Positions 7,796 through 21,670 of a DNA stretch of 64,000 bases are shown piece after piece. Source of the stretch: Pseudomonas pergaminensis (GTDB lineage: Bacteria; Pseudomonadota; Gammaproteobacteria; Pseudomonadales; Pseudomonadaceae); NCBI RefSeq assembly GCF_024112395.2, contig NZ_CP078013.2, positions 2,666,001-2,730,000 on the forward strand. The letters run 5' to 3'. How positions within the stretch are numbered: the first letter of the stretch is position 1; each line of letters begins with the position of its first letter. The position numbers and the translations under genes were made by a program. The notes beneath the pieces are model-generated. The model was not told where the DNA came from, ran no database searches, and saw only the letters and a list, made by a program, of their open reading frames with translations.

Positions 7796-8032
7796 TCAGT
7801 TCGCTTGATGCAGGCGCTGGTTCAGTTCATCCACGGCAATCGCCCATTCGGCATCGTCGCGAAGCTCTTCCTTGAGAAAACTCGCTTGTTGCGCCGACCA
7901 GAACGGTGCATCGATGAGCTTCACGTCTTCAGGCAATGGATGGGCAACGATAAACGCATCGATGGCGTCTGGGGTTGAATCCAGGCCCAATTGTTCAAAC
8001 AGGGTTTCAAGGGTGGGGATTGGCGCGTCCAT
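7796..8032 (-). CDS. DUF2789 family protein
   Basis: A 78-residue acidic protein beginning MDAPIPTLETLFEQLGLDS and containing the family block IDAFIVAHPLPEDVKLIDAPFW and SFLKEELRDDAEWA. This matches DUF2789, a small, widespread gammaproteobacterial family of unknown role. I chose the inner ATG because the bases GGAG of the codons before it provide a ribosome site; the outer ATG four codons earlier lacks one. It ends seven bases from the convergent small gene at 7585-7788. Confidence 0.85.
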   Translation of the reverse strand: MDAPIPTLETLFEQLGLDSTPDAIDAFIVAHPLPEDVKLIDAPFWSAQQASFLKEELRDDAEWAIAVDELNQRLHQAN

Positions 8033-8099
8033 TTGGTTCTCCATGCAGGGTGGTCGTTATGCATGGGAGGGTTGTGGCGCAGCAGAGTTCTATCGGATC

Positions 8100-8384
8100 T
8101 CAGGAATTCAGGGCCCCGGCGTCCACGGCAGTCTTTAACGCCTTGGCGGCGTCCTTGGCGGCGATGGCAGCCGCGTCGACAGTTTTGAACCAGCGGTCTT
8201 TTTCCACCTGGTGGGTGGTGACAGTGGTCAGCGGTGGCTTGGCCCGCATTACGATCACAGCTTGGAATTCGCCGTCTACTTCTCTCGCGTCGCCATGGAT
8301 GAAAAATTCGCCGATATCAAATTCCGTCACGTAGAGCCTTCCCTTGGAGATAACTGCACTGGTGAAACCTGGCCCGGCGGGCAC
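8100..8384 (-). CDS. Conserved hypothetical protein, about 94 aa
   Basis: A small protein with a beta-rich first half (GFTSAVISKGRLYVTEFDIGEFFIHGD, split here by my reading) and an Ala/Lys-rich helical tail ending KDAAKALKTAVDAGALNS. No signal peptide or membrane segment is seen. The start is uncertain: the GTG used here has a poor ribosome site, and the frame stays open for about 15 codons upstream with CTG codons only. It lies between two other small minus-strand genes and may be co-transcribed with the one at 8441-8716. I do not recognise the family. Confidence 0.5.
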   Translation of the reverse strand: MPAGPGFTSAVISKGRLYVTEFDIGEFFIHGDAREVDGEFQAVIVMRAKPPLTTVTTHQVEKDRWFKTVDAAAIAAKDAAKALKTAVDAGALNS

Positions 8385-8440
8385 AAACTTCAGTGGACGG
8401 GCCAGTATGGCAGTTGTTGCGGGTCGGCGGCGCAGTTAAG

Positions 8441-8716
8441 TTAATGGCCTGACGAAACGATTGCTCCGTGGGCTGTCTGCAGCATTGCTTCAAGTTTCTT
8501 GGCCAGCTCGCAGGCCTTGACATGGTCGCTGCGAAAGCCTTTGATTCGGCCGCTGAGCACTTCGCGGATGTGGAAGAAGTTTCTACCGGCAGGCACGACT
8601 TGGTAAAGAACCGAATCCGAGTACCCATCAGAGCCATTCAAGCGGTAGTATTGGGCTTCGTCCTGACGGGATGGACGGGTGTACGAAGACATAGCGCTGT
8701 AGGTTGATCGTTGCAT
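8441..8716 (-). CDS. Conserved hypothetical protein, 91 aa
   Basis: A 91-residue protein whose ATG is preceded by AAAGGAG at ideal spacing, which makes translation credible. The sequence starts MQRSTYSAMSSYTRPSR, then has YRLNGSDGYSDSVLYQVV and a helical C-terminus FRSDHVKACELAKKLEAML. The central part suggests a small beta-sheet followed by a long helix. No catalytic motif is evident. It is the first gene of a short minus-strand series running to 7796. Confidence 0.6.
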   Translation of the reverse strand: MQRSTYSAMSSYTRPSRQDEAQYYRLNGSDGYSDSVLYQVVPAGRNFFHIREVLSGRIKGFRSDHVKACELAKKLEAMLQTAHGAIVSSGH

Positions 8717-9113
8717 GGCCTGCTCCTTTCGGTCGATCCGGGTAATGTGATTGCAACGCTGTGGGTGGTTTTGCTCTGTGCTGCTGTTTTAGTATTGTCG
8801 TCGGCGGTCAACACCCAGTTCCGTGGCAGGTGTGTCTTTTTGTGTTGGCATGTCGGAAAACTGCATTTTTAATTGGGTTTTTCTCTGAAGTTGGTCAGCC
8901 CGTATTCTCGGGCCGTTGAACCTGTGATCTCCTGTGATGCCTGATGACCTTTACAAAGGTCCATCGCGTACGTCTGTACTAGTCTTATGGCGCGACAGCG
9001 GGATTTTCTTCAGTTTTTTTCAAACAATGCGTTGTGTGATCGTGCCGTAACGGCCGTTTTTTTGTGCTGCCCGCTCTGGCGGACGGCGCTCTTTTCGATG
9101 TGGGGGCGTTTCC
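8717..9113. other. Intergenic region with one perfect palindrome, no gene seen
   Basis: No credible coding frame on either strand. The stretch is T-rich around 8780-8890. It holds a perfect palindrome, GACCTTT-ac-AAAGGTC at 8946-8961, whose size suits a dimeric repressor; the following gene on the plus strand starts about 150 bases downstream. Promoters of the two divergent genes probably lie here, but I cannot assign them. Confidence 0.4.
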
Positions 9114-9584
9114 TTGGCAGTCAGTAATCTGGATATGCACGCGTTGTTCGTGCTGGGTGATTTGCGCGCAAAGTTGGTCAAACAGTTTCAATCCCGTTTT
9201 GTTTACATTACCGAACAGACGCCGGAAGGCATCTACATTGCCGAAATCGACACTGAAGCGGCGCTGGTGGTGGACGACAAGCCTCGCCTTGAACTCAAAG
9301 TCGGCGACCATTTCCGCGCGGCGGTATTGCCCAGTCGTGAAGGCGGCAAGTTCGAGTTGAAGTTCCGCGACATCAAGTTGACCGTCTATGGCCTGGGCGA
9401 CTACGCCTTTGTGTCCTCGACCGAAGGCCAGGGCATTGTGTTCAAGGAAGGCCACAGCGTGATGCTGGTGTTCGCCGCCAACGAGCAGTTGCAAGAAGGC
9501 CTGACCAAAACCCTGAAAGCCGTGACCGGCAAGGCCGCCAAATGGCGAAAGGGTGAACTGGTCACGTTCAAGGCCAGCGAGTAA
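9114..9584 (+). CDS. Conserved hypothetical protein, about 156 aa
   Basis: A soluble protein that looks like a compact beta-domain: FVYITEQTPEGIYIAEID, LELKVGDHFRAAVLP and KFELKFRDIKLTVYGLGDY, ending in a Lys-rich helix. No signal peptide, membrane segment or catalytic motif is visible. The start is either TTG 9114 (GGGGGCG upstream) or ATG 9135 (MHALFVLGDL); I keep the longer form. It is monocistronic, followed by the promoter region of a betaine-type binding protein. I do not recognise its family. Confidence 0.6.
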   Translation: MAVSNLDMHALFVLGDLRAKLVKQFQSRFVYITEQTPEGIYIAEIDTEAALVVDDKPRLELKVGDHFRAAVLPSREGGKFELKFRDIKLTVYGLGDYAFVSSTEGQGIVFKEGHSVMLVFAANEQLQEGLTKTLKAVTGKAAKWRKGELVTFKASE

Positions 9585-9717
9585 TCAGCAAAAACCGCGA
9601 TCACCCGCTATCTCCCGGAACCTCTACTACAGTTGAGTTGACTTAACTATTCAGAGGCTTCGCGCATACGCAGCAAAGCCGTCCGCCATTGGCTGCGATA
9701 TCGCGAGGTGCGAAGGC

Positions 9718-10734
9718 ATGAAAGGATTGAGAACACTATTGGCTGCGTCCCTGACGACACTGGGGCTTTCAGTGGCGACGCTGCCGGTTAACGCCGCCCA
9801 GGCACCGATACATTTTGCCGACCTGAACTGGGAAAGCGGCAGCCTGATCACCGAAGTGCTGCGGGTGATTGTCGAGAAGGGTTTCGAGCTGCCCACCGAC
9901 ACGTTGCCGGGTACCACCATCACCCTGGAAACCGCCTTGGCGAAGAACGACATCCAGGTGATCGGCGAAGAGTGGGCCGGCCGCAGTCCGGTGTGGGTCA
10001 AGGCTGAGGCCGAAGGCAAGGTGGTGGGCCTGGGCGATACGGTCAAGGGTGCAACCGAAGGCTGGTGGGTGCCGGAATACGTGGTCAAGGGTGACCCGGC
10101 CAAAGGCATCAAGCCCCTCGCCCCCGAGCTCAAGAGCGTGAAGGACCTGGCGCGCTACAAAGACGTGTTCAAGGACCCGGAATCCCCAGGCAAGGGGCGC
10201 TTCCTCAACAGCCCGATCGGCTGGACCTCGGAAGTGGTCAACAAGCAGAAGCTCAAGGCCTATGGCTTGGATGACAGCTACGTGAACTTCCGCAGTGGCT
10301 CGGGCGCGGCACTGGATGCCGAGATTGCCTCATCGATCCGCCGGGGCAAGCCGGTGTTGTTCTACTACTGGTCGCCGACGCCGCTGATGGGGCGCTACAA
10401 GTTGATCCAGCTGGAAGAACCACCGTTCGATGCCGAGGCATGGAAGACCCTCACGGATGCGGATAACCCTGATCCGAAGCCGACGCGATCGTTGGCGTCC
10501 AAGTTGAGCATCGGCGTTTCTACGCCGTTCCAGAAGGAACACCCGCAGATCGCCCAGTTCTTCGAGAAGGTCGAATTTCCGATTGACCCGCTGAATAAAG
10601 CCCTGGCGACCATGAGCGAAAATCACACCGCCCCTCGGGAAGTGGCCCAGGCGTTTCTCAAGGAACATCCCGAGGTGTGGAAGGCGTGGTTGACCGAGGA
10701 TGTGGCACAGAAGGTTGAGGCCAGCCTGAAATAA
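9718..10734 (+). CDS. ABC transporter substrate-binding protein, OpuAC (glycine betaine/proline) family
   Basis: A 338-residue exported protein with a Sec signal peptide ending near residue 27 (LPVNAAQA). The mature part matches the OpuAC/ProX-type fold: FADLNWESGSLITEVLRVIVE, GTTITLETALAKNDIQVIGEEW and the hinge FYYWSPTPLMGRYKL, with aromatic residues that could cage a quaternary amine. The frame starts after GCGAAGGC. No ATPase or permease gene is adjacent, so it must dock with a transporter encoded elsewhere, a frequent arrangement for choline, carnitine and betaine binders in Pseudomonas. A REPIN follows its stop codon. Confidence 0.87.
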   Translation: MKGLRTLLAASLTTLGLSVATLPVNAAQAPIHFADLNWESGSLITEVLRVIVEKGFELPTDTLPGTTITLETALAKNDIQVIGEEWAGRSPVWVKAEAEGKVVGLGDTVKGATEGWWVPEYVVKGDPAKGIKPLAPELKSVKDLARYKDVFKDPESPGKGRFLNSPIGWTSEVVNKQKLKAYGLDDSYVNFRSGSGAALDAEIASSIRRGKPVLFYYWSPTPLMGRYKLIQLEEPPFDAEAWKTLTDADNPDPKPTRSLASKLSIGVSTPFQKEHPQIAQFFEKVEFPIDPLNKALATMSENHTAPREVAQAFLKEHPEVWKAWLTEDVAQKVEASLK

Positions 10735-10758
10735 GCTCGGACCTCACGGCCTGGTGAA

Positions 10759-10845
10759 TGTGGGAGCTGGCTTGCCGGCGATGCAGGCGACTCGGTACCT
10801 CAGGTGTACCCAGGTGATGCCATCGCTGGCAAGCCAGCTCCTACA
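10759..10845. repeat. REPIN (two inverted REP elements)
   Basis: Two copies of the fluorescent-pseudomonad REP consensus face each other: GGGAGCTGGCTTGCCGGCG on the left and its near complement GGCAAGCCAGCTCCTACA on the right, with a short variable centre. It separates the betaine-type binding protein from the convergent TonB receptor, so it could also act as a bidirectional transcript end. Confidence 0.85.
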
Positions 10846-10863
10846 GTGGTTTGTGTTTGAATG

Positions 10864-12990
10864 TCAGAACCGGGTTTGTACCGCCACCTCAAAGGTTCGT
10901 GGCGAGCCCAGGTAATAGGCCGGCGATACATGCGCGAACTCGGCATACACTTCATTCGTCAGGTTGCGCACCCGGCCCGTCACCGAGGTGCGCGAGTCGA
11001 CCTTATAGCGCAGGAACGTTCCGAACAGCGTGTAGGCCGGCACTGTCTGGGTGTTGGCATTATCCGCGTACACCTCGGCGACATACCGCGCATCCACCCC
11101 CCCTTGCCAGTCCTCGGCAAAGTCATACGTCAGCCACAGGTTGCCCACGCGCTTGGGCACGTTAGTGGGCGTGTTGCCCTTGCGCGAAACCACTGCGCCA
11201 CTGGCGATTTTCTCGTTGAAGTCATCGTACTCGGCATCGACCCAGGCGAAGTTGCCCTCTGCCAGTAGCTTGGGCGTGATGCGCAGCGAGCTGGCCAACT
11301 CGATACCCTTGGATGATTGCGCGCCGACCGGAATGCTGTTGGTCGGATCCTGCGGGTCGGTGACGGCAAAGTCCTTGCGCTCGATCTTGTACGCGGCAAC
11401 GGTGGCCGATCCACGGCCGTCCAGGTAGTCGAACTTGCTGCCCACTTCCCACTGTTTGCCGGTCGAGACATCGAACACTTGCGTCGTGGTAGTCGGTTGC
11501 TCGGCGGCAGTGCTGTATTGCACATACACATTGGCCGATGGGATGAACTGATAGGTCAGGCCCACGCGGCCAGTCACCGGGTCCCAGCTGCGCTTGAAGT
11601 GGCGAGGGTTGGTAGCGGTTATCGCGCGGTGGTTGGTGACGTCCAGGTCAATGGCGTCATAACGCAGGCCGGTCAGCAGCGAGAGTTTGTCAGTGAGGCC
11701 CAGACGATTCTCCACGAACAGCGCCTTGGTGGTGACTTCGTTGGTCTTGTCCTTGCCGAACTTCTCTCGGGTTCGCGGGATGTCGTAGAAGTGGCCGGGG
11801 TCGAAGTTGTTCGGGTCTACCGTGCTGTTGCCGGGCACATTCAGCGGGGTGTTGGTGGTGCTGTTGACCTTGTACTCGAAACCGCCAGACCAGGTGGTCG
11901 ACAGGCCAAAAATACGGTCGTCGTGTCGCAACTCGAACTGGTTGCCGTTCTGCTCGCCCTGATGACGCACTTGGTAAGCCGTCGAGCGGTTCACCGCGCT
12001 GTTGTCGGCGTTGTACTGGTAGGTTTCCAGGTTGCGGTAATCGCGTTGGCTGTCCAGGTGATAGAGGGTGTTTTTCAGCGTGGTGCTGTCGTTGAGACGA
12101 TAGTCGATGATCGAACGCGCCCAGATCGTGCGCTGCTCGTAGCGGCCGTCGGCGACGTTGTAGTTGTTGAAGCGGTTGTGCTTGTCGATCTTCAGTTCGC
12201 CCGCCTTGGGGTTGAGCACCGGCGTGCCCCAGTAGGGACTGTCTTCGTGCTCGTCCTGGTATTCCAGCGCCAGGGTGTGGGACAGGTTGGGGGTGAGGTC
12301 GCTGAGCAGGGAAAACGCCAGGCTCCAGGCCTCGCGCTGATCACGGTCGATGTAACTGTGGTTGGTGTTGCGGCTGACATCCAGGCGGGCGTAATGCTGC
12401 ACCTCGGCACCGGGTTCGGTCAGGGCATGATTGACCCCGAAAGCCATGCCGGCAGTGTCGTAGCTACCATAGGTGAGTTGGCCTTCGGCCGCCTGTTCCT
12501 CACGGGTCGCCAGCTTGGTCACGTAGTTGAGCGAACCGCCCACGGAGCCTGCACCGTTGATCAGCGAGGAGGGGCCGCCCACCAGTTCCACCCGGTCATA
12601 GATCCACGCATCCACGGGACGGGCCAGGCCGGTCGCGACGTTGATGCCGTTGAACATCTGGGTGATCTGGCTGCTGGTAAAGCCACGGAAGGAGACAAAC
12701 CCGCCAAACCCCGGTGGGGCGCTGGCGTTGACGCCGGGCAGGGTATTGGCCGCGTCGCGGAAGGTCTTGGCGCCATGGCGCTCGATATCATTGCGATTGG
12801 CGATGGCCACCGACGCCGGGGTTTCCCGCACGCTCAAGCCCAACCGCGATGCCATGCCACTGGATTGGTCCAGGGCCAGGCCGGGTTCGGCGGCTTGTTC
12901 GCCATCAATGGTCGTTGGGGCCAACTCAAGGGCCCAGGCGCAGACAGGCAGGCAGCCGAACAGGCCTGCCAACAGAGGTAGATGTTTCAT
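10864..12990 (-). CDS. TonB-dependent siderophore receptor
   Basis: About 708 residues. A signal peptide (MKHLPLLAGLFGCLPVCAWA) is followed by a TonB-box-like LELAPTTIDG, then directly by the plug domain (SVRETPASVAIANRNDIE, GFGGFVSFRGFTSSQ, DRVELVGGPSSL) and a 22-strand barrel ending in Phe. There is no N-terminal STN signalling domain, so it should not drive an ECF sigma factor. The start is the inner ATG with AGGA upstream. Iron-siderophore uptake is the usual role of this class, and the exact ligand is unknown. The DUF2946 gene lies 95 bases upstream on the same strand and probably belongs to the same unit, which raises the possibility of another metal such as copper. Confidence 0.9.
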   Translation of the reverse strand: MKHLPLLAGLFGCLPVCAWALELAPTTIDGEQAAEPGLALDQSSGMASRLGLSVRETPASVAIANRNDIERHGAKTFRDAANTLPGVNASAPPGFGGFVSFRGFTSSQITQMFNGINVATGLARPVDAWIYDRVELVGGPSSLINGAGSVGGSLNYVTKLATREEQAAEGQLTYGSYDTAGMAFGVNHALTEPGAEVQHYARLDVSRNTNHSYIDRDQREAWSLAFSLLSDLTPNLSHTLALEYQDEHEDSPYWGTPVLNPKAGELKIDKHNRFNNYNVADGRYEQRTIWARSIIDYRLNDSTTLKNTLYHLDSQRDYRNLETYQYNADNSAVNRSTAYQVRHQGEQNGNQFELRHDDRIFGLSTTWSGGFEYKVNSTTNTPLNVPGNSTVDPNNFDPGHFYDIPRTREKFGKDKTNEVTTKALFVENRLGLTDKLSLLTGLRYDAIDLDVTNHRAITATNPRHFKRSWDPVTGRVGLTYQFIPSANVYVQYSTAAEQPTTTTQVFDVSTGKQWEVGSKFDYLDGRGSATVAAYKIERKDFAVTDPQDPTNSIPVGAQSSKGIELASSLRITPKLLAEGNFAWVDAEYDDFNEKIASGAVVSRKGNTPTNVPKRVGNLWLTYDFAEDWQGGVDARYVAEVYADNANTQTVPAYTLFGTFLRYKVDSRTSVTGRVRNLTNEVYAEFAHVSPAYYLGSPRTFEVAVQTRF

Positions 12991-13085
12991 GGTTGAATCC
13001 TGAAAAACTTGGCTTGAAAACAACGCACAGCCGCCCGTACTTCCTTGCGGAAACGGTGCTCAGTGCAGATCAAAACGCGAAGGAA

Positions 13086-13475
13086 TCAGGCGAACGCAGG
13101 TGGCGCGCGTGGATTAGCCGCGGGCCAGGTGAAGCGGGCAGGGATGTCAGCAGCCAGGACAATGGCTGGCGGTGGGGCGTGGGGTTGTGGCAATACGGCC
13201 ACATTCAGGCTGGAACTCAGGGCCGGGCCCATGCCACCGGTGGAACACAGCGGGCAACCAAACGCCTTGGACAGCGTAGGCAAATTCTCTTCAGTGGAGT
13301 TGGACGGCTTGGGCGCCTGGGTACGCGGGTCCACCGTACAAAACTGACCGCCGATGCCATTGAGCTGCATCCCGACCATCTGCCCATGACCGATACTGCA
13401 GGCGAACACATTGAACAGGACGCAGCTGTAGAGCATCCAGGCAATGAGCGAGCGGTCGGCACGGGCGATTTTCAT
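13086..13475 (-). CDS. DUF2946 family protein
   Basis: About 129 residues. The N-terminus has a hydrophobic segment (SLIAWMLYSCVLFNVFACS) that may be a signal anchor, and later CysXXCys-type and isolated Cys residues (QFCTVD, CPLCSTGG), then a Pro/Ala-rich tail. This fits DUF2946, a family found beside TonB receptors and copper-related genes in proteobacteria. The start codon is uncertain because two in-frame ATGs 18 bases apart both lack a good ribosome site. Co-orientation and close spacing with the downstream TonB receptor suggest they are co-expressed. The metal-handling role is inference. Confidence 0.75.
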   Translation of the reverse strand: MKIARADRSLIAWMLYSCVLFNVFACSIGHGQMVGMQLNGIGGQFCTVDPRTQAPKPSNSTEENLPTLSKAFGCPLCSTGGMGPALSSSLNVAVLPQPHAPPPAIVLAADIPARFTWPAANPRAPPAFA

Positions 13476-13568
13476 GGGGCGGCACTTTACCATCAGCCGC
13501 CGACGAAATGCCTGCAAAAAATCTCAGGGCGACTATCCTGTTTCGCACCTTTTCAGGGAGAGCCAGCC

Positions 13569-14006
13569 ATGAGCTTTGTTGTCGCACGATGGATTGTCGG
13601 GGTTTTTACCTGCATCAGCATGGTCCACCTGTACTGGGCCGCCGGCGGCAAACTCGGCAGCCTCGCCGCCATCCCCCAACTGCCCGGCGAATTCGCCAGC
13701 GGGCCAAAGCCCGCGTTCAAGCCCTCGGCGCTCGGGACCTTCCTGGTCGCGATGGGGCTGGTGGCCATTGCCCTGCTGGTTTGCCTGCGGGCGGGGCTGT
13801 ATTTCTCGGCGGTGTCTCACGGGGCCTTGCAGTGGGGGATCAGCGCGATTGCGGTGGTGATGTTTGCCAGGGCGATTGGGGATTCGGAGTTGGTGGGGTT
13901 TTTCAAGAAGGTCGGTGGGTCGAGGTTTGCGAGGTTGGATACGTATTTTTACTCGCCGTTGTGTTTGGTGTTGGGGGTGGGGTTGTTGGTGGTGGCGTGG
14001 GGGTGA
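13569..14006 (+). CDS. DUF3995 integral membrane protein
   Basis: A 145-residue membrane protein with four predicted helices: ARWIVGVFTCISMVHLYW, GTFLVAMGLVAIALLVCL, ALQWGISAIAVVMFARAIGD and CLVLGVGLLVVAWG. The order and the conserved HLYWAxGG and RFARLDTYFYSPLC blocks match DUF3995. The ATG follows AGGGAGAGCCAGCC. Codon use turns unusually G-rich over the last 150 bases. It is transcribed towards the AT-rich immunity cluster, whose last gene it meets tail to tail. Function unknown. Confidence 0.85.
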   Translation: MSFVVARWIVGVFTCISMVHLYWAAGGKLGSLAAIPQLPGEFASGPKPAFKPSALGTFLVAMGLVAIALLVCLRAGLYFSAVSHGALQWGISAIAVVMFARAIGDSELVGFFKKVGGSRFARLDTYFYSPLCLVLGVGLLVVAWG

Positions 14007-14013
14007 ACAGGCC

Positions 14014-14397
14014 TTAAGTGTTTGTGGGGTATAGGTGGAGTTTAGTTGTGGTTACTTGAACAAAATCTGATTGTTGAGGGTGCTGCTCTTCAATGTCAAT
14101 GAGAATTATCGCCTGGCCTAGTTTTAAAACGGCGTGATCGTTGTCAAGGTCATGGATTAGTCTGGCGATTATTTGGGTTGTATTTTTGGAGAAAGTGATC
14201 AGTGGTGTTTTGGGTGGAGAAGGGATAATGTTCTTATGCCAGCAAAGGACTTCATCTATATCCATCTCTACATCCGGAGTGTCGCCAATATTAGGTGCTG
14301 TGCCGTTCCAAAAGGCAATGCCATTTCCGTTCGTTGAATAAAATTTCACGATTACCTTGTTATGGTCTTCATGTGTCTGGTTTATTTTTATCTTCAT
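14014..14397 (-). CDS. AT-rich hypothetical protein, putative orphan immunity gene (127 aa)
   Basis: A 127-residue protein with many Ile, Asn, Asp and Lys codons, unlike the GC-rich genes around it. It is beta-rich by eye (KVIVKFYSTNGNGIAFW, AVLKLGQAIILIDIEE). Its ATG overlaps the stop of the preceding gene by four bases, so the two are translationally coupled. Lying at the far end of the small-gene tail behind an Rhs toxin, it fits an orphan immunity gene retained from an earlier toxin tip, but I recognise no family. Confidence that it is coding is good, the role is inference. Confidence 0.6.
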   Translation of the reverse strand: MKIKINQTHEDHNKVIVKFYSTNGNGIAFWNGTAPNIGDTPDVEMDIDEVLCWHKNIIPSPPKTPLITFSKNTTQIIARLIHDLDNDHAVLKLGQAIILIDIEEQHPQQSDFVQVTTTKLHLYPTNT

Positions 14398-14810
14398 AAA
14401 AGCCTCGCGATATCCAAGTCTCCTTCAAATGACATGCAAGCAATCCACGTCAATGATCTCGAGACGATGTAGGTGTATTGAGGAATTGTTGAGAAAATCC
14501 TAAGCGCTTTCTCTATGTGCTTTAGGCTTACGGAGTAAGCCTCGTCACAGGCTGAGTCGCCAATGAAAATCGGATTCTCGCTAGTGAGCTTCTGAACTTC
14601 CTCAGCTAGGTGTGATATCGCTAAGTCTGATGATGAACGTCCAAGGTTCATACTCGTTTCTAATTTTTCCCAAGCAACTTTACTCACCGAAAACGGCACG
14701 ATGTCATTGATTGTGTTAACCAATGATGTGTGATCAGCCTCAGGCAGGATGGCGAATTTTATGTTGAACGCGTTTAAGTCGGTCGTGACTTCTTTGTCGT
14801 AATAATTCAT
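14394..14810 (-). CDS. AT-rich hypothetical protein, putative orphan immunity gene (138 aa)
   Basis: A 138-residue acidic, helical protein starting MNYYDKEVTTDLNAFNIKF, with no signal peptide or membrane helix. Its 3' end overlaps the next gene (ATGA), which indicates a two-gene unit. No clear ribosome site precedes its ATG. Size, acidity, low GC and position in the series downstream of the Rhs gene are typical of immunity proteins for polymorphic toxins. I cannot assign a named immunity family. Confidence 0.6.
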   Translation of the reverse strand: MNYYDKEVTTDLNAFNIKFAILPEADHTSLVNTINDIVPFSVSKVAWEKLETSMNLGRSSSDLAISHLAEEVQKLTSENPIFIGDSACDEAYSVSLKHIEKALRIFSTIPQYTYIVSRSLTWIACMSFEGDLDIARLL

Positions 14811-15001
14811 GTCATTGGAAAACTTTAGGTTTTAAGTATTGGTTTCTGAGTTGCCTTAAAAAAGTTAATGAGGTCTCTCTTTTTTTTGTCAGGCAAAACA
14901 TTCATGTAGGCACCACTTAAATGTGTCTGTATTTCTGTTGGTTTTCTCTATGCGCGGAGGTGGATGTTCAATCATTGCGTTCTCTACTCGGTGAGCCATT
15001 C

Positions 15002-15511
15002 TCACTCACATACATTTGTTTTATGATTTTTCGCTGGGCAATCAAGTTCATGCTGTATGAAGTACAGGTTGGACGTTGAACCGGGGATTTTTTTGGCTTT
15101 TCCCAATTTCAGGTACTCGAGGAACTCATGCTCTAGGTACCCTTCGTCGGTGTATTGTTTGTATTTATGCGGTAGCTCACAAGCGTAATTATATAATCGC
15201 CAAATATCAAATCCGTCGACCCTGTCATCAGGCCCGTAATCAAAATCGATGTATAGATTAGATAGGTAAACGCAACAGCCAATGCCGTGCAATTCGTAAG
15301 TCACGTCTTTGGTGACAGAGCCTCGTTGTGGAATTTTTCCGGAACGCCATAACCTCAGAATGTTTTTGGTTCCGAAGTATCGTTCGAGTAGTTCCGTTGC
15401 TTCATACACATGGTTCAGATATTCCGATATCAGGGTTTCTAATGTATGGGTTTGCACTGTGCTAGTGTTTCCAGGCTGAGGGATTGACTTAGTTGGATGG
15501 GGGGTGAGCAT
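15002..15511 (-). CDS. DUF6896-like protein, putative immunity gene
   Basis: About 169 residues. The central block YELHGIGCCVYLSNLYIDF followed by DYGPDDRVDGFDIWRLYNYA resembles DUF6896, a small family often seen beside polymorphic toxins; I name it from memory of the motif, not from a search. The first ~25 residues are Pro/Thr-rich and the ATG lacks a ribosome site, so the true start may be internal, for example nearer the LISEYLNHVYEATELLERYF helix. It is AT-rich and lies in the Rhs downstream array, consistent with an immunity role. Confidence 0.62.
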   Translation of the reverse strand: MLTPHPTKSIPQPGNTSTVQTHTLETLISEYLNHVYEATELLERYFGTKNILRLWRSGKIPQRGSVTKDVTYELHGIGCCVYLSNLYIDFDYGPDDRVDGFDIWRLYNYACELPHKYKQYTDEGYLEHEFLEYLKLGKAKKIPGSTSNLYFIQHELDCPAKNHKTNVCE

Positions 15512-15571
15512 TTATTTTTTTGCCGAACCTTTTTCGTATTGCCTGGCATAAGTAAATCTTAATCTTTAGTG

Positions 15572-15865
15572 TTATGCGGGCTTCCAGAATTTTAAACCTT
15601 GTATGTGGCGCTCTAAGTCATCCATGTCGTCGTCTCCCAAAGTTGTATCAAATCCTGCGGTGATTAGTCCTCTCACCTTAGCGAGTCTTGATGTGATTCG
15701 AGCGTTGTCAATAAAATCAGTGGTGGCACGCTGATACTCCTCAGAAGACTTGTCAATATAGTAAGTGCCTATTTTTCGTAGTGAAACCAGTATGAGTTCG
15801 ATCTCTGTCAACGCATTCAAGGCGTCCTCTCCGGAGATTGTTATTCTTTTGTTTGCATCCAGCAT
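15572..15865 (-). CDS. AT-rich hypothetical protein, putative immunity gene (97 aa)
   Basis: A 97-residue helical protein. The ATG at 15865 has a strong AGGAG eight bases upstream; the longer frame beginning at 15898 does not. The sequence has ISGEDALNALTEIELILVSLR, then DFIDNARITSRLAKVRGLITA and an acidic TLGDDDMDDLERHIQ. No known domain is recognised. Low GC and its place in the Rhs downstream series suggest immunity or a stranded accessory gene. Confidence 0.58.
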   Translation of the reverse strand: MLDANKRITISGEDALNALTEIELILVSLRKIGTYYIDKSSEEYQRATTDFIDNARITSRLAKVRGLITAGFDTTLGDDDMDDLERHIQGLKFWKPA

Positions 15866-16065
15866 TTCACTTTCTCCTAAGAAAGTAGGATTTAGCATTG
15901 CAGGGGGAATATTCCTACCTCGGAGGAGTATTCGGGGGTGGAGAGTGTGGCGCGCGGGTTTATCTGCTCAGCCGGATGATATTGAGCCTTCGAAGCGGTG
16001 CTCATAGTGAGAGGGAAATTTTCAGTTTGTGTACTCCCTCATTTCTGCTGAGCACTTTTTTGTTT

Positions 16066-16195
16066 TGTGGTGAGCATGCTTGCCCTGCGTCGGGCTACGC
16101 AGCAGCCTCAAAACAGACATGCTGATTGACCTGAAGTACCCACTGACTGCCCGGGGCTGCTTCGCGGCCCAACGCGAGCAAGCTCGCTCACCACA
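16066..16195. repeat. REPIN of the GTGGTGAGC type inside the immunity array
   Basis: Inverted ends GTGGTGAGCATGCTTGCCC on the left and GAGCAAGCTCGCTCACCACA on the right enclose GC-rich palindromic arms containing GCAGCAGCC and GGGCTGCTTCGC. It occupies the gap between the genes at 15572-15865 and 16231-16650, which otherwise holds no gene that I can see. The same element class occurs near 58.6 kb. Confidence 0.75.
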
Positions 16196-16230
16196 GGGGG
16201 ACGGTGTTGCCTTTGAGAGTGGTGTTGGTG

Positions 16231-16650
16231 TCACCAAGTTGACTGGTCTTCGAGGCTGGCTTTTTGAAGGTCTTCTTTCCAGACCTCGTTGGCGAGTCGA
16301 TAGATGTCGGCGAAGAAGCCTCGGGGGTCGGCTATTTCTGTTTCGTCCCAGGCCATTTTCGAATACGACTCTGGGTCGTCTTCAAAGAAAGAGTGGAAGT
16401 TAAATGATTCAGTGTTTAATGCATCAAGTAAATTTTCTATTAATTTATATCTGTGGCGATATGAAAGCTTGTTAAAGGGGTCCAGGCAGTATTCAAGTAT
16501 GAGAGTTTCTCTGTCTCTATTTTCGTTAGGGTTGAAACGGGCGAGCGCTTTTCCCTTAGTTTCCTCCCTATCATAAATGTCGAAAATCCCTACGAAATAA
16601 CTCAAGCTGGCGTCGAAAGGTATGTGCTCGGAAGAAGGATGAAATAGCAT
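16231..16650 (-). CDS. Probable cognate immunity protein of the Rhs toxin (139 aa)
   Basis: Its ATG lies only three bases beyond the stop codon of the rhs gene, the standard position of the cognate immunity gene, and translation is probably coupled. The product is 139 residues, acidic and soluble, with YFVGIFDIYDREETKGK, a Tyr/Arg-rich middle and an acidic FEDDPESYSKMAWDETEIADP loop that could neutralise a basic toxin. It is AT-rich like the toxin tip and unlike the rhs core. No named immunity family is recognised; the assignment rests on position and composition. Confidence 0.78.
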   Translation of the reverse strand: MLFHPSSEHIPFDASLSYFVGIFDIYDREETKGKALARFNPNENRDRETLILEYCLDPFNKLSYRHRYKLIENLLDALNTESFNFHSFFEDDPESYSKMAWDETEIADPRGFFADIYRLANEVWKEDLQKASLEDQSTW

Positions 16651-16653
16651 TTT

Positions 16654-19600
16654 TCACTCCTTAATGGGGAATAGAGTAAAAGGCGTACCATCTTCACGGA
16701 ATTTCATTTCTGCACCATTCATTGAAGGGTTGAAAGTTGGATTGTTCGGATCTTTCTTATTTGGTCTGTAGCCACGTCCTGCCCCTGGTAGTTCTAAGCG
16801 CACGATATCGTTTTTCTTGTCATCGACGCCAGTGTAGCGTGGTAGCCCTCTTTCAGTACGAGACGTAGCTTTCGTCCAAGCCTGAAGTTGAAGCTTCCAG
16901 CTATTAAACTGCGAACTTGGAACTCCCTTCCCGTTGTTCGGAAGTATGTCTGTTATGGGGTCTCTTCCGTCGACTGATCGCCTCCTTATTTTCGTGCTGT
17001 CTACCGCTGGTCCGTGCTTGCCGACCATATGCATGTCGTACTTCGATTCGTATTCCAAAATTCGACGCTTCGCATTGGCTTCGGTGAGCTCCTCAATGCG
17101 CGCCTGCGTTTCTGTACGCGCAGAGTAGGGAGTGAATGGCTCACCATGGTCAACTTTAGCGTCATCAAATGGATTTGGCGATTTAATAGTTGACTTGCAA
17201 TTATCAGCGTGAGGACAAGAACTCAGTCCTAGGGGGTCTATCCATCCAGTAGGGTTGGGTACGTACTGATATCCGTTGATCCCACCTGCCAACTTCACCG
17301 GGTCCGGCGTCAGGTACCGACCAACATCCGGATTGTAGTAGCGATGGCGGTTGTAATGCAGCCCGCTTTCTTGATCGAAATACTGTCCCTGAAATCGCAG
17401 CGGGTTGTCGACTTTTCCTATGTCGAGACGGCTGATTTCGCCGTACGCGCGGTAATGCGCGGACCATACGATTTCGCCATCGGGGGCGGTGAGTTCCTGT
17501 GGGGTGCCGAGGTGGTCGAGTTGGTAGTGGTAGGCCTTGGTTTCCTTTGGGCCGAAGCCTTCCAGCAGGGCCAGCGGGCGGAAGCTGTCCGGTTCGTAGA
17601 GGTAGCTGCGGTGGCGGTTCGCGTGGTGCTCGGCGATGAGTTTGTCGCCCTGCCAGAAGAACTCGGTCGTTATGTCATCAACGGTTTTGCTGATGCGGCG
17701 GCCAAATGGGTCGTAGCGGTAGCTGGCGGTTTGGCCGTTGGGCGTCTTAACGCCGATCAGCCGATGCTGGCAGTCGTAACGGTATTCGGTGACGAGTTGA
17801 TGGCCTTTGCCGCGTCGTTCGCGGATGAGGTTGCCGAAGGCGTCGTAGTCGTAGTGGTGGTCGCCCTGGATCATCAGGCGGTTGCCGGCGACGATGTCGG
17901 GGCCGGGGCGGTTTTGCATGAGCAGGTTGCCGGCGGGGTCGTGGCCGAAGCGTTCTTGCTCGTCTTGGGTGTGGTCGGCGCGGGTGAGGCGGCTTAGGGG
18001 GTCGTAGTGGTAGCGGTGATCGCCTTTGCGGGTGTCGAGCAGGCGGGTGAGGTTGCCGGATTTGTCGTAGTCGTAGTGGCGTTGGTAGAGGGTGTAAGCC
18101 TGCTGGCTGACGGCGTGAGCGTGTAGGCGCTGCTGGTCGTCGTAGTGGTAATGGCTGATCAGTTGGCCTTGTTGGCGTTGGTGTTCCTGGCCGGCTTTGA
18201 ATAGATGAGAAGTAAGGACTTCACCGTTCAGTTCGACGGTGGCGAGATGGCCACCTTTGGTGTGGTTGAACGTGAGGCGGTTATTGTCCGGCAGGCGTAG
18301 GTTTTGCAGTTGGCCGCAGGCGTCGTAGCCGTAGCGCAGGGTGCCCCAGCCTTGGTGTTCGGCGGTGAGGCGGTTTTGAGCGTCGTATTCGTAGGCCAGG
18401 GCCCAATGGCCATCTTCGACGCTTAGGAGATTGCCCTGGCGGTCGTAGGCGTAATCAACCTTGTTGCCATCAGGTAGGGTTTTTCTTACGAGTCGACCGG
18501 CATGGTCGCGCTCGTAGCGGGTAACCAACTGACTACCGTCATCACCGTGTTCGGTCTTTTCCTGCAGGTTGCCATTGAGGTCGTAGACGTAAGCCGTGCG
18601 CTGCCCGTCAAACCCGGTTTCCTGCTGGATCAGGCCGTTGCTGTGGTACTGGAGTCGGTAGGTTTCGCCAACCTCGTTTTCAATTTCGGTCAGCAATAAC
18701 CGCACATTGTCGTAACGGTATTTGACCTGGCTGCCATCAGCGTTGATGCGCCGGCTGATCAGGTGCAAGCCGTCGGCGTATTCGTAGCGGGTGACGTGGC
18801 CGAGTTCATCCCGTTCGGAGGTGATTTTTCCGTACGCGTTGTAGGTATATTTACGCGTATCACCGCTCGGCAAGACGATTTGGACTAATCGCCCAACGTC
18901 GTTCCACTCAAATTGTGTGAGCGCCCCGTGCTCATCTTCTTGGGAGATTTTTCGCCCAAGATCGTCATAGCGATAACGCTTGATCCCACCATTGGGCAAT
19001 TGCTCTTCAAGCAACTGCCCACGCTCATTCCACACCAGCCGCTGACAGCTATGATCCGGGTACCAAACCCCAACCAACTGCCCGTATTTGTTGTAGCTGT
19101 AGTCAGTCACATGACCGTCAGGATCGGTCTTGCGCGTTACATCGCCTTGATCATTGCGCTCATACTTCCAAACCGCCTGACCCCGCCTTACAACCCGTAC
19201 GAACCCGTTGTCATGCTCGTAGGTCGTTGGCTCATCGTCCCCCGGAAACAACGCCACCAAACGTCCGGCTTCGTCGTACTGATACGCCGTGATCGCGCCC
19301 AGCGGATCCTGCTCAACCGTCAGCCGCCCGTTGTCATCGTAGGACTTGAAGTGCTCGGCCCCGTCCGGATCCACCCGCTGCACCAGCCGTGCGCGCTGGT
19401 CATGCACGTAGACTTCCTGGCTGCCATCGGCGTTAAACACCGTGACCTGCCCGTTGTCGTCCCAGGCATAGCGCGTGTCCATCTGCGAAAAGCTCGCCCA
19501 ATGCCGAACACACCGCGCCGCCTTGCCAGCCCGTTCCCACTCCCAGTAGAAACTCGCCCCACCGGCCAAGCCGCGTTCAAGAATGACGTGCTGATCGTCG

Positions 19601-21417
19601 TACCGATAAACCTCGCTTTCGCCGACAGCGTTAGTCGCTGAAATCAGTCGGCCAAGGTCGTCATAGGCGTAGGAAACAACCGTCTGTTCCGTCACCCAAA
19701 CATACGGACCCTCGTCCACGATGCGTTGAATTTGGTAGTCCACCGCCACAATCCGGCCCGATGCGTAGCGCAACAACAGCGAGCGCCCCACGCCGTTATC
19801 CAGGCGTTCAATGCGCCCCAGAAAATCCCGGGCAATACGCAGCCGGTTGTCATACGCGTCGCTGATCGCTGTCAGCACACCGTCGCGGAAGTGGTAGAAG
19901 CGTGACGCCTGAGCCAGCACCAGTTCATCGGGCAACGACCCCAAATAGATCGCCGCTTCAGCCAGGCTATTGGTGATTGCGGGACGAGAAACGGAAGGCA
20001 AGGGCAGGGTGGTCGAGCGATTTTCATGATCGGTCCACACCACCGAATCACCGGAAACACTCAGCCGATGGGCCAGCGAGTGGCTCCAGCCAAACCCCAG
20101 CCCGCAATCCATTTCTACCGCGCTGGTGCGGTACAACCGGGTCCACTCAAACGGCAAAATGCCGTCCAACGCCCCATCGGTGAGGGTCAGCAGTTCTTCG
20201 CCCGTGACCATCGACACCGGGCAGCCGTTGGTGGCGGTCTTGTCCGAAGGCGCGGCCGCATCCCCAGCCGGGTTCTTCGCAACAGCCGGCACGTCATCCA
20301 CAGGCTCTTTCTGCTTCAGCACCGCGTTCTGCCGCGCCTTCCAGCGCATCTGCATCGTGCCTTGCTTGAGCCCGCCGACCACCCCGCGGACCGCGACCGC
20401 CTTATAGCGATCCACGGCCTGCATGAACTTCGTCAGGATTGCCAAAAGCCCCTTAACAAAGCCCACCGCCGCATCAAGAATCTGCGCCCCATACTTGACC
20501 AGCCGCAGACTCAAATACGCCACACCCGCCGCCGGCAAGGCGATGGTCAACACCACGCCAATCACTAGGTCGATCAGCAGCGACACCACAAACCCAGCCG
20601 CCACTTTCGCTATTTCGCTGGGTGGCAATGCATCCAACCAGATCATCGCCGTGCGCAACATCAGGTACAGCGCGGCCTCGTCACTGGCCAGCAACATGGC
20701 CTGCTCCATGACCTTGGGTGCATCGGTCGCGAGCTGCGCCAACTTGGCTGCTTCGGTGCCCAACTGTTCGACGAACTTCAGCGGGTCTTCAAGAATCGCC
20801 TGCACCAGCTTGATGCTGTCCCACACGTCGCGAATCGCCGCCCAACTGCCCGCCAACAGGCCGCTGCCAATTGCACTGGCGGTCGAGTGTTTCCACTGGG
20901 GTTTAAAGCCAGACCATTGCTCCCGAAGCCACCGCTCCAGGTCGCCGGTCAGCCCGGCGTAAGAGGTAAACAGGGCCTCGACCTGTTCCTCGGACACGCC
21001 ACCCTGCACCCGCACCTGGTAGCGCCCACCCGCCGCGCAGTGGTGCGAACCCTTACCCTGTTCATCCAGCATGATCACGGTGGAACTGCCGTCATCCAGG
21101 CCGATGACCTCCACCGGGATATTGCCGATCGGCACGTCATACACCGACTCGAACAGGCTCTCGATCTTCAGTTCGCCGCCCATTGGGCACTGGCTCACGG
21201 TCGAGAAATCAGCATCTGCCATGCTCACCGAGCGCTGTGAATCCCCCACCCGCAACACCCGGTCCATCCCCAGCAGCGAAGGCATGTCCAGCCCATGGCT
21301 GACTGAATCCAGCGCGCGCGAATACCAAGTGCCCATTTGCTGGCGATAAATCACCAGGCTCTGGTGAAAGCCATTCAGTTCATGTTCGATCAGGGCAATG
21401 TGGGCAGCGTGGGTCAT
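16654..21417 (-). CDS. Rhs-family polymorphic toxin
   Basis: About 1587 residues. The N-terminus (1-260) is helical with no PAAR motif; a hydrophobic stretch at roughly 269-305 (VVSLLIDLVIGVVLTIALP) may insert in membrane. From ~394 a DUF6531-like block (GCPVSMVTGEELLTLTDG) opens the Rhs core, followed by dozens of YDxxGRL-type repeats that build the cocoon. The core ends with GLHYNRHRYYNPDVGRYLTP and DPLGL near residue 1396, where self-cleavage is expected, and a variable 187-residue tip follows. I chose ATG 21417; the in-frame TTG at 21441 lacks support. No vgrG, EagR or other type VI gene lies nearby, so its export route is unclear. The immunity gene follows at once. Confidence 0.93.
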   Translation of the reverse strand: MTHAAHIALIEHELNGFHQSLVIYRQQMGTWYSRALDSVSHGLDMPSLLGMDRVLRVGDSQRSVSMADADFSTVSQCPMGGELKIESLFESVYDVPIGNIPVEVIGLDDGSSTVIMLDEQGKGSHHCAAGGRYQVRVQGGVSEEQVEALFTSYAGLTGDLERWLREQWSGFKPQWKHSTASAIGSGLLAGSWAAIRDVWDSIKLVQAILEDPLKFVEQLGTEAAKLAQLATDAPKVMEQAMLLASDEAALYLMLRTAMIWLDALPPSEIAKVAAGFVVSLLIDLVIGVVLTIALPAAGVAYLSLRLVKYGAQILDAAVGFVKGLLAILTKFMQAVDRYKAVAVRGVVGGLKQGTMQMRWKARQNAVLKQKEPVDDVPAVAKNPAGDAAAPSDKTATNGCPVSMVTGEELLTLTDGALDGILPFEWTRLYRTSAVEMDCGLGFGWSHSLAHRLSVSGDSVVWTDHENRSTTLPLPSVSRPAITNSLAEAAIYLGSLPDELVLAQASRFYHFRDGVLTAISDAYDNRLRIARDFLGRIERLDNGVGRSLLLRYASGRIVAVDYQIQRIVDEGPYVWVTEQTVVSYAYDDLGRLISATNAVGESEVYRYDDQHVILERGLAGGASFYWEWERAGKAARCVRHWASFSQMDTRYAWDDNGQVTVFNADGSQEVYVHDQRARLVQRVDPDGAEHFKSYDDNGRLTVEQDPLGAITAYQYDEAGRLVALFPGDDEPTTYEHDNGFVRVVRRGQAVWKYERNDQGDVTRKTDPDGHVTDYSYNKYGQLVGVWYPDHSCQRLVWNERGQLLEEQLPNGGIKRYRYDDLGRKISQEDEHGALTQFEWNDVGRLVQIVLPSGDTRKYTYNAYGKITSERDELGHVTRYEYADGLHLISRRINADGSQVKYRYDNVRLLLTEIENEVGETYRLQYHSNGLIQQETGFDGQRTAYVYDLNGNLQEKTEHGDDGSQLVTRYERDHAGRLVRKTLPDGNKVDYAYDRQGNLLSVEDGHWALAYEYDAQNRLTAEHQGWGTLRYGYDACGQLQNLRLPDNNRLTFNHTKGGHLATVELNGEVLTSHLFKAGQEHQRQQGQLISHYHYDDQQRLHAHAVSQQAYTLYQRHYDYDKSGNLTRLLDTRKGDHRYHYDPLSRLTRADHTQDEQERFGHDPAGNLLMQNRPGPDIVAGNRLMIQGDHHYDYDAFGNLIRERRGKGHQLVTEYRYDCQHRLIGVKTPNGQTASYRYDPFGRRISKTVDDITTEFFWQGDKLIAEHHANRHRSYLYEPDSFRPLALLEGFGPKETKAYHYQLDHLGTPQELTAPDGEIVWSAHYRAYGEISRLDIGKVDNPLRFQGQYFDQESGLHYNRHRYYNPDVGRYLTPDPVKLAGGINGYQYVPNPTGWIDPLGLSSCPHADNCKSTIKSPNPFDDAKVDHGEPFTPYSARTETQARIEELTEANAKRRILEYESKYDMHMVGKHGPAVDSTKIRRRSVDGRDPITDILPNNGKGVPSSQFNSWKLQLQAWTKATSRTERGLPRYTGVDDKKNDIVRLELPGAGRGYRPNKKDPNNPTFNPSMNGAEMKFREDGTPFTLFPIKE
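16657..17217 (-). other. Variable C-terminal toxin tip of the Rhs protein
   Basis: The 187 codons after the DPLGLSS junction differ in base composition from the rhs core, as expected for exchangeable tips. They begin CPHADNCKST and include MHMVGKHGPAV, KIRRRSVDGRDP, a basic GAGRGYRPNKKDPNNP stretch and end AEMKFREDGTPFTLFPIKE. The HxxxKHG arrangement with later Arg and the closing GTPFTLFP recall small secreted RNase-type (BECR-like) tips. This is only resemblance; the activity is unknown. Confidence 0.7.
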
Positions 21418-21670
21418 CCGTGACGTCCGGGCAGAGGGCAAGGCGTCGGAGCATGCCGCAGCAAAAAGCGTCTGGATGAGCGGTTGAGAAAATCAGAAAA
21501 CGCCGACTACCCAGAGGGAAAAACCGCGAGAAACCCACCCAAAGGGCTACACGAAAAAGCGACAAACCTGATTGCGTCATCGCTTCTCAAATAAAAATCG
21601 CTCGCATCCTTGCCCGATTTCCCGACGTGGCCGTCATGGTTAATAGAACCTCCCTTACGCAGGATTTCCC

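What the first reader, a model, noticed from the sequence alone, without database searches (positions are those of the whole stretch)
14014..16650. AT-rich bank of putative immunity genes behind one Rhs toxin
Five small genes of low GC follow the rhs gene on its strand. The first is three bases from its stop and is the presumed cognate partner. The others are spaced by gaps, one pair is coupled by ATGA, one resembles DUF6896, and a REPIN is inserted among them. This is the picture expected from repeated replacement of toxin tips with retained immunity genes that protect against kin toxins. At least three of the proteins match no family I know.
Basis: partly seen in the sequence, partly recalled or inferred. 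Interest (0 to 1): 0.75.

Follow-up and report, generated by a model that had tools for sequence, protein, structure and literature searches.

The report
Layered immunity genes behind Rhs toxin
Behind one bacterial weapon gene lie five small, probably protective genes, each of which in relatives pairs with a different weapon tip, and all five tips are found in use at this same spot in one relative or another, so the row reads like layers recording which weapons were swapped out; the kind of locus is known, but this one can be read layer by layer.

Summary
In detail: five low-GC genes (g1-g5) follow rhs, with a REPIN among them. Relatives of each gene sit directly behind a different Rhs tip. 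Of 116 distinct intact tips, 75 fall in five types: 73 are followed by their own immunity type, 2 by none, 0 by a wrong one. g1 is cognate to the present tip. g2 pairs with a Tox-ART-HYD1 tip, g3 (DUF6896) with a ParB-like DGHHR tip, g4 with a CdiA-like tip (PDB 5t86), g5 with an unnamed tip. Tips 2-5 were not found in this genome (control for tip5 only).

At this site, 27 alleles with both flanks include all five tips, two rhs-less alleles keeping g3, and nine near-empty sites. P. fildesensis carries [tip4-g4]-g5. Scars remain: a tip4 3' end before g4 and, marginally, a tip2 end before g2. The g1-g2 spacer holds the end of an M20 peptidase gene from a second rhs locus, so the newest cassette came from there; the join lies within about 17 bp.

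This is sequential effector displacement, described in Vibrio, here unusually complete. Two predicted intermediates are missing; protection is inferred.

The parts
16654..21441 (-). rhs, 1595 aa: N-terminal part (aa 1-364), core (aa ~365-1410, window 17212-20349) and tip1 (window 16654-17211)
   Evidence: Pfam RHS_repeat, RHS, DUF6531; NCBIfam Rhs_assc_core at 1330-1406; PDB 7q97 Rhs E=1.8e-126
16654..17211 (-). tip1, the present C-terminal toxin tip; no Pfam, NCBIfam or PDB match
   Evidence: 10-sequence alignment with M60-H61, K65-H66, S99-S100-x-F102, G145-x-G-Y-x-P-N151 invariant
16231..16650 (-). g1, presumed cognate immunity gene of tip1
   Evidence: 27 of 29 intact tip1 copies are followed directly by a g1 homologue, 2 (L027, L032) by none of g1-g5
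16066..16195 (.). REPIN-like inverted repeat between g1 and g2
15905..16000 (+). decayed 3' end of an M20 peptidase gene that neighbours another rhs locus (carry-over of the newest cassette)
   Evidence: 83.7% over 98 aligned columns, E=3e-23, to the end of L196:3878-5143, which is Peptidase_M20 E=3.2e-32
15888..15905 (-). recombination junction: homology to peptidase-side cassettes ends, homology to resident tip2-g2 alleles begins
   Evidence: blastn ends at 15888 for L235, L289, L293, at 15903 for L290, at 15905 for L291; starts at 15894 for L236, 15892 for L238, 15878 for L256
15866..15894 (-). short, marginal scar of the tip2 3' end
   Evidence: L132: score 26, largest of 200 shuffles 25; not significant against L124 and L126; homology to L236 starts at 15894
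15572..15898 (-). g2, orphan immunity gene for tip2 (likely start ATG 15865)
   Evidence: 10 of 10 intact tip2 copies followed by g2 homologues; L236, same locus, 89% aa
15002..15511 (-). g3, DUF6896, orphan immunity gene for tip3 (likely start GTG 15457)
   Evidence: Pfam PF21837 E=1.5e-31; 19 of 19 intact tip3 copies followed by g3 homologues
14843..14918 (-). scar of the tip4 3' end, frameshifted
   Evidence: DNA alignment to six tip4 genes, 0 of 200 shuffles reach the score in any of the six (best 51 against shuffle maximum 26; weakest 31 against 30); weak at protein level (best E 0.16)
14394..14810 (-). g4, orphan immunity gene for tip4
   Evidence: g4 homologue next to the tip in 7 of 7 loci (L117 is the contig of the query, L122 has only a partial tip); 7 of 7 intact tip4 copies, an overlapping set
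14014..14397 (-). g5, orphan immunity gene for tip5; oldest layer, 7 nt from the conserved flank
   Evidence: 10 of 10 intact tip5 copies followed by g5 homologues; [tip5-g5]-flank alleles L239, L240, L241
13500..14006 (.). conserved downstream flank used to find the same locus in other species

Best explanation
The locus is an orphan-immunity array made by repeated displacement of the Rhs toxin tip. Each incoming cassette carries the 3' part of the rhs core, a new tip and its immunity gene. It pairs with the resident gene through the conserved core and joins on its right side at a non-homologous point in or near the old tip. The old tip is cut off and decays; the old immunity gene stays behind the new pair. 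Read from the flank inwards, the layers are tip5/g5 (oldest), tip4/g4, tip3/g3, tip2/g2 and tip1/g1 (present). SHOWN by sequence: the pairing of each gene with its own tip type, all five tips as residents at this locus in one genome or another, a tip4 scar, the foreign peptidase tail, and a core shared with two other rhs genes of this genome. INFERRED: that g1-g5 bind and neutralise those tips; that orphans are expressed and shield against kin still using the old tips (I put this at about 0.65); and that the right-hand joins arise by homology-facilitated illegitimate recombination (insertion followed by deletion is also possible). The confidence given is for pairing and displacement.
For: (1) Of 116 distinct intact tips: tip1-g1 27, tip2-g2 10, tip3-g3 19, tip4-g4 7, tip5-g5 10, no cross pairs, 2 tip1 with none, 41 other tips with none of g1-g5. 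(2) Of 27 alleles with both flanks, 15 have an rhs core with tip1 (1, the window), tip2 (2), tip3 (3), tip4 (1), tip5 (4) or another tip (4); rhs is truncated in L238 and L240, and in L266 about 8 kb of other genes separate g5 from the flank. (3) [tip4-g4]-g5 in P. fildesensis L119 beside the same downstream flank; the g5 match ends 7-15 nt before the flank in the window, L119, L122 and the [tip5-g5] alleles L239, L240, L241. (4) The six best relatives of g3, the three best of g4 and the single best of g2 and of g5 are at this locus; 5 of the 6 best for g1 are at the peptidase locus, the sixth undetermined. (5) tip4 scar, peptidase tail and mapped junction. (6) Core of the window rhs against two own paralogues: 16 of 17 sixty-codon blocks (L183) and 11 of 17 (L196) are 0.93-1.00 identical in DNA, lowest 0.76, while N-terminal parts (0.35-0.52) and tips (0.29-0.44) are strongly diverged. 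(7) Tips 2-5 not found in the own genome; for tip5 the same query matched 5 of 7 genomes in a control. (8) g2 dN/dS 0.16.
Against: No expression or protection data. No allele [tip3-g3-g4-g5] or [tip2-g2-g3-g4-g5] was found; L236 [tip2-g2] has four unidentified ORFs and no g3-g5 hit behind g2. No scar before g3 in three comparisons; none was tested before g5, which overlaps g4; the g2 scar is marginal. Order differs elsewhere: g4 precedes g3 in L146 and L267, so histories are plural. Orphan or remnant copies are broken or partial in L122, L172, L173, L234, L255. For g3, g4 and g5 all comparisons have dS of 1.6 or more, too high for a clean test. The negative own-genome searches for tips 2-4 have no matching positive control. 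The loci behind (1) were gathered by hits to g1-g5 or tips or by the flank, so that table is not an unbiased sample.
Confidence: 0.88

Rival explanations
1. The whole array g2-g5 was imported as one ready-made block with the rhs 3' region, not built layer by layer at this site.
For: Kirchberger et al. report such block transfers in V. cholerae (PMC5361080 section 13). g4 and g5 are already neighbours in L119, L121 and L122, and the best relatives of both are in one allele, L119, so at least that pair can move together.
Against: The best relatives of g2, g3 and g4/g5 are at this same locus but in three different alleles (L236, L251, L119). The g1/g2 junction separates two source loci. Identity to the best relative falls with depth (g2 89%, g3 69%, g4 60%, g5 51%), though this could also reflect uneven sampling.
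Confidence: 0.1
2. The orphans are passive debris: left over because the right-hand join falls upstream of them, without benefit. (Compatible with displacement; it rivals only the protection step.)
For: Several orphan or remnant copies elsewhere are broken or partial (L122, L172, L173, L234, L255), and 9 of 27 alleles with both flanks are near-empty sites.
Against: All four orphans here are intact ORFs; g2 shows constraint against L236 (7 nonsynonymous to 7 synonymous on the window branch; binomial p=0.023 against neutrality; part of that branch may predate displacement); g3 persists in L144 and L258 although rhs is reduced to a stub.
Confidence: 0.3
3. Some of the small genes are not immunity genes but independent genes beside rhs.
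For: g2 relatives stand alone beside an EAL-like gene (L137, L138) or behind a VgrG-like gene (L127) (names by eye); diverged g1, g3, g4 and g5 relatives lack a nearby rhs hit (L184-L195).
Against: The strict tip-gene pairing; patchy presence in 14-49 of 159 genomes.
Confidence: 0.05

Closest known systems
T6SS immunity-gene arrays of Vibrio cholerae (Kirchberger et al. 2017, PMC5361080; abstract and sections 12-13 read)
   Same: One live effector followed by old immunity genes in order of displacement, most intermediates in other strains, a displaced effector 3' end, homology-facilitated illegitimate recombination proposed
   Different: Here Rhs tips in Pseudomonas, compared across species at one site; a non-homologous right junction is placed within about 17 bp and carries a tail from another locus
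Rhs C-terminal displacement (Jackson et al. 2009, PMC2935791; abstract and section 10 read)
   Same: Conserved core, swapped tips, low-GC displaced material downstream
   Different: There the displaced pieces keep partial core plus tip; in the window there are immunity genes with at most short 3' tip scars (pieces with core occur in L234 and L256)
Serratia marcescens Rhs1 locus (Hagan et al. 2023, PMC10539506; passages read)
   Same: Orphan immunity genes without tips behind a live Rhs pair; one protects experimentally
   Different: NADase tips; the passages I saw name two downstream orphans; I did not compare the protein families
Polyimmunity loci (Zhang et al. 2012, PMC3482391; passages read)
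   Same: Heterogeneous unrelated immunity genes in tandem
   Different: Those usually lack a toxin gene; this row is attached to a live rhs
Tox-ParB toxins with DGHHR motif (PMC3482391 passages; Pfam ParBc_2)
   Same: tip3 has DGHHR and a ParBc_2 match at 22.7 bits
   Different: Below the Pfam cut-off of 23.6; partner is DUF6896, while the passages shown list Imm20, Imm27 and Imm-SuFu
PDB 5t86 CdiA toxin
   Same: tip4 profile E=4.5e-11 over 70 residues
   Different: Carried by Rhs, with g4 as partner; g4 has no trustworthy PDB match

Membership tests
Immunity array by sequential effector displacement | One live effector with its cognate immunity gene first | tested here: met
   tip1-g1, 27 of 29 tip1 copies
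Immunity array by sequential effector displacement | Further genes are cognate to effectors of other strains | tested here: met
   g2-g5 homologues follow tips 2-5 in 46 of 46 intact cases; by position, not by binding
Immunity array by sequential effector displacement | Own genome lacks those effectors | tested here: met
   matching positive control only for tip5
Immunity array by sequential effector displacement | Simpler intermediates at the same locus elsewhere | tested here: met
   [tip5-g5], [tip4-g4]-g5; the two later predicted intermediates were not found
Immunity array by sequential effector displacement | Orphans protect against the foreign effector | not testable with these tools
   needs bench work
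Rhs effector | YD/RHS repeats and RHS core before a variable tip | tested here: met
T6SS-delivered Rhs | N-terminal PAAR domain | tested here: not met
   No PAAR in the Pfam scans; delivery by other routes remains open
T6SS-delivered Rhs | Adjacent vgrG or adaptor gene | tested here: inconclusive
   ORFs of 160 aa or more up to 31 kb read by eye only: none looked like vgrG; no family scan of them
Tox-ART-HYD1 (tip2) | Pfam PF15633 above cut-off | tested here: met
   34.7 and 49.7 bits, cut-off 25, for L036 and L038
Tox-ParB (tip3) | DGHHR motif | tested here: met
   D84-R88 invariant in 10 of 10 aligned
Tox-ParB (tip3) | Pfam ParBc_2 above cut-off | tested here: inconclusive
   22.7 against 23.6 bits in both tips scanned
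DUF6896 (g3) | Pfam PF21837 above cut-off | tested here: met
   109.5 bits against 27

The most novel reading that the evidence does not exclude
Three rhs genes of one Pseudomonas genome act as a shared exchange system: their near-identical cores are the homologous arm, and tip-immunity cassettes move between loci by recombination that is homologous on one side and illegitimate on the other, dragging bits of neighbouring genes. DUF6896 is an immunity family for ParB-like Rhs tips, and tip1/g1, tip5/g5, g2 and g4 are families without a model in the libraries searched.
Probability: 0.5. Interest if true: 0.62.

Novelty: new member of a known kind. Interest (0 to 1): 0.52.

Why it matters
It gives a readable weapon history at one locus, with live forms of all five layers in other genomes, and predicts the toxin that each orphan should block. 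That makes the question of why bacteria keep old immunity genes directly testable, with five predicted pairs and named carriers such as P. fildesensis. It also gives DUF6896 a predicted function, and a mapped junction that bears on how tips move between rhs loci.

Tried and rejected
Tip profiles against the six frames of the array found no clear remnant (best E 0.16, tip4); DNA alignment did for tip4. DNA scar tests for g3 gave nothing in three comparisons, and for g2 two of three were not significant. A single-sequence AlphaFold model of tip1 was useless (mean pLDDT 42.9), so no fold search was made. PDB sequence searches with tip1, tip5, g4, g3 and g1 gave nothing trustworthy; tip2, g2 and g5 were not searched there. 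tip1 in viral contigs: no relative. Rfam: nothing at the gathering threshold in 13000-18000. Promoter and terminator scans were not above shuffles. The 117-bp piece between g1 and g2 was first considered as a recombination repeat; it is the end of a peptidase gene. Duplication as the origin of the array was set aside because each gene pairs with a different tip; I ran no fold comparison between the five. Plasmids: g3-like matches over about half the query in 33 records, 26 of them Providencia; g1 in 1 record; contexts not read.

Literature: searches (listings and starts of abstracts). No paper held the word DUF6896 or both 5T86 and CdiA. I saw no paper in those listings that describes this Pseudomonas locus, but only open-licence PMC papers are held. 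Passages of PMC11751169 and PMC13392607 were read and add nothing used here.
Full report
WHAT IS THERE. Behind rhs (16654-21441, minus strand) lie five ORFs, g1 to g5, down to 14014. They have GC 0.41-0.44 against 0.58 for rhs. g3 is DUF6896. The other four match no Pfam or NCBIfam model above cut-off, and none of the five has a PADLOC match. g4 and g5 overlap by ATGA. A REP-like inverted repeat lies between g1 and g2. The finding's description is right.

WHAT EACH GENE GOES WITH. Homologues occur in 49 (g1), 18 (g2), 27 (g3), 14 (g4) and 17 (g5) of 159 genomes of the genus, own genome included. I cut out the Rhs tip in front of the homologues and later classified every distinct intact tip of 90-260 residues with at least 350 bases behind it in the held loci: 116 in all. 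tip1 is followed by g1 in 27 of 29, tip2 by g2 in 10 of 10, tip3 by g3 in 19 of 19, tip4 by g4 in 7 of 7, tip5 by g5 in 10 of 10. No tip is followed by a wrong type; 41 other tips are followed by none of the five. The two exceptions (L027, L032) look like a sister tip type that shares the N-terminal stretch. The loci were gathered by hits to these genes or tips or by the flank, so the table is not a random sample, but I see nothing in the gathering that favours matched over crossed pairs. A scan of named genomes with tip4 gave 7 loci, and g4 is next to the tip in all 7; one of them, L117, is the contig of the query itself.

THE TIPS. tip2 is Tox-ART-HYD1 (34.7 and 49.7 bits, cut-off 25). tip3 carries an invariant DGHHR motif, a ParBc_2 match just under the cut-off and a weak sulfiredoxin match in the PDB (E 0.0096). 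Zhang et al. describe DGHHR in ParB toxins (PMC3482391, passages). tip4 matches PDB 5t86, named CdiA toxin (E 4.5e-11). tip1 and tip5 have no Pfam, NCBIfam or trustworthy PDB match.

ORPHANS. None of tips 2-5 was found in the own genome. For tip5 the same query matched 5 of 7 genomes in a control, but not the own; tips 2-4 had no such control. The own genome has three other rhs genes; two of their tips are HNH-superfamily (Tox-HNH-EHHH and AHH), one is unnamed.

THE SAME SITE IN OTHER GENOMES. A DNA search with the array and its downstream flank matched 264 of 398 genomes (the match list was cut by the tool, and many weak matches are short). In 61 listed genomes besides the own the match spans nearly the whole 500-bp flank (76-94% identity); 7 were already held and I fetched the other 54. 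With L119, L122 and L166, found through the genes, and the window, 65 alleles were read. Both flanks were seen in 27. Of these, 15 have an rhs core: tip1 in 1 (the window), tip2 in 2 (L236, L238), tip3 in 3 (L141, L142, L250), tip4 in 1 (L256), tip5 in 4 (L239, L240, L241, L266), other tips in 4 (L234, L242, L243, L252). In L238 and L240 the rhs gene is truncated; in L266 about 8 kb of other genes lie between g5 and the flank; in L243, L252 and L266 the upstream flank match is short. Of the 12 without a core, L144 and L258 keep g3, nine have 242 bp or less between the flanks, and L249 has 879 bp without a hit. The other 38 alleles show one flank only: 14 with a core, 24 without. Among the latter L122 and L166 keep g4 and g5 (damaged in L122) with rhs truncated or gone. 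Where the upstream flank was not seen I do not count a site as empty.

ORDER. In the window the g5 match ends 7 nt before the flank. In L239, L240 and L241 the resident pair is tip5-g5 and g5 ends 11-15 nt before the same flank. In P. fildesensis (L119) the order is [tip4-g4]-g5, 13 nt to the flank. This is the nested series that displacement predicts. The next two stages, [tip3-g3-g4-g5] and [tip2-g2-g3-g4-g5], were not found. L236 has tip2-g2 (g2 89% identical) but no g3-g5 hit behind it; in L141, L142 and L237 tip3-g3 stands alone before the flank; L146 and L267 have g4 before g3. The stages come from different lineages, so the series is a reconstruction.

SCARS AND SOURCE. Window 14843-14918 aligns to the 3' end of six tip4 genes; none of 200 shuffles reached the score in any of the six. 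It lies where tip4 would end in front of g4 and is frameshifted. A short tip2 end may lie in front of g2 (one of three comparisons just above all shuffles). Between g1 and g2, window 15905-16000 is the end of an M20 peptidase gene (83.7%, E 3e-23), which sits beside another rhs locus, in this genome too (L196). Homology to peptidase-side loci ends at 15888 in L235, L289 and L293 and at 15903-15905 in L290 and L291; homology to resident tip2-g2 alleles begins at 15894 in L236, 15892 in L238 and 15878 in L256. The last bases of each alignment are weak, so I place the join within about 15888-15905. Five of the six best relatives of g1 are at the peptidase locus, the sixth is undetermined; the six best of g3, the three best of g4 and the single best of g2 and of g5 are at this locus. 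The newest cassette therefore most likely came from the peptidase-side rhs locus. The own peptidase-side locus now has another tip and immunity gene; G364 (L235) holds a g1 that is 95% identical there, behind a tip1 remnant.

EXCHANGE ARM. Against the window rhs, the paralogues L183 and L196 have strongly diverged N-terminal parts (DNA identity 0.35-0.52) and tips (0.29-0.44 past the join), but a core in which 16 of 17 blocks (L183) and 11 of 17 (L196) are 0.93-1.00 identical, lowest 0.76. The fourth rhs gene (L197) is diverged throughout. That fits repeated recombination through the core.

SELECTION. g2 against L236: dS 0.33, dN 0.05, ratio 0.16, Fisher p 9.7e-6. On the window branch 7 nonsynonymous and 7 synonymous changes, binomial p 0.023 against neutrality; part of that branch may be older than the displacement. 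g3, g4 and g5 are too diverged for a clean test.

READING. The array is an orphan-immunity array by sequential displacement. Kirchberger et al. proposed the same path in V. cholerae, with homology-facilitated illegitimate recombination (PMC5361080, sections 12 and 13). Jackson et al. described Rhs tip displacement (PMC2935791, section 10). Hagan et al. showed protection by one Rhs orphan in Serratia (PMC10539506, passages). What is added here: partners for five genes, a predicted role for DUF6896, live forms of all layers at one site, and a join whose two sides come from different loci. Binding, expression and protection remain inferred. Delivery is open: no PAAR domain, and no vgrG-like ORF seen by eye next door.

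Noticed in passing
L140 (G127:C57), about 8000-8790 on the reverse strand: Two g2-like domains lie in tandem inside one ORF of about 260 aa, like a polyimmunity protein.
   Followed up: no
L127 (G108:C1:562145-578444), about 8001-8300: A g2 relative (64%) sits behind a VgrG-like gene and a smaller gene without rhs (names by eye).
   Followed up: partly
L137 and L138, about 8000-8300: A diverged g2 relative (45-46%) stands alone beside an EAL-like gene in two genomes, no toxin seen (names by eye).
   Followed up: no
L256 (G358), 10224-12980: [tip4-g4] followed by a short core fragment and [tip2-g2]: a displaced tip still intact with a piece of core.
   Followed up: no
L234 (G364), 8182-13104: Same locus with another tip, then a tip1 remnant and g1, a core fragment with tip5-g5, a tip4 fragment and broken g3: another deep array.
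   Followed up: no
L183 (own genome 1924290-1936498), 4852-5626: Behind the second rhs gene lie two tandem paralogous small genes (both contain MKYWNELD), similar to a gene in L146.
   Followed up: no
Plasmids of Providencia, Proteus, Morganella, Caballeronia: DUF6896-like stretches (the 15 rows shown: 40% over half of g3) on 33 plasmid records, 29 of them typed conjugative; context not read.
   Followed up: no
window 58566-58700: Two pieces of the same REP-like repeat, in opposite orientation.
   Followed up: no
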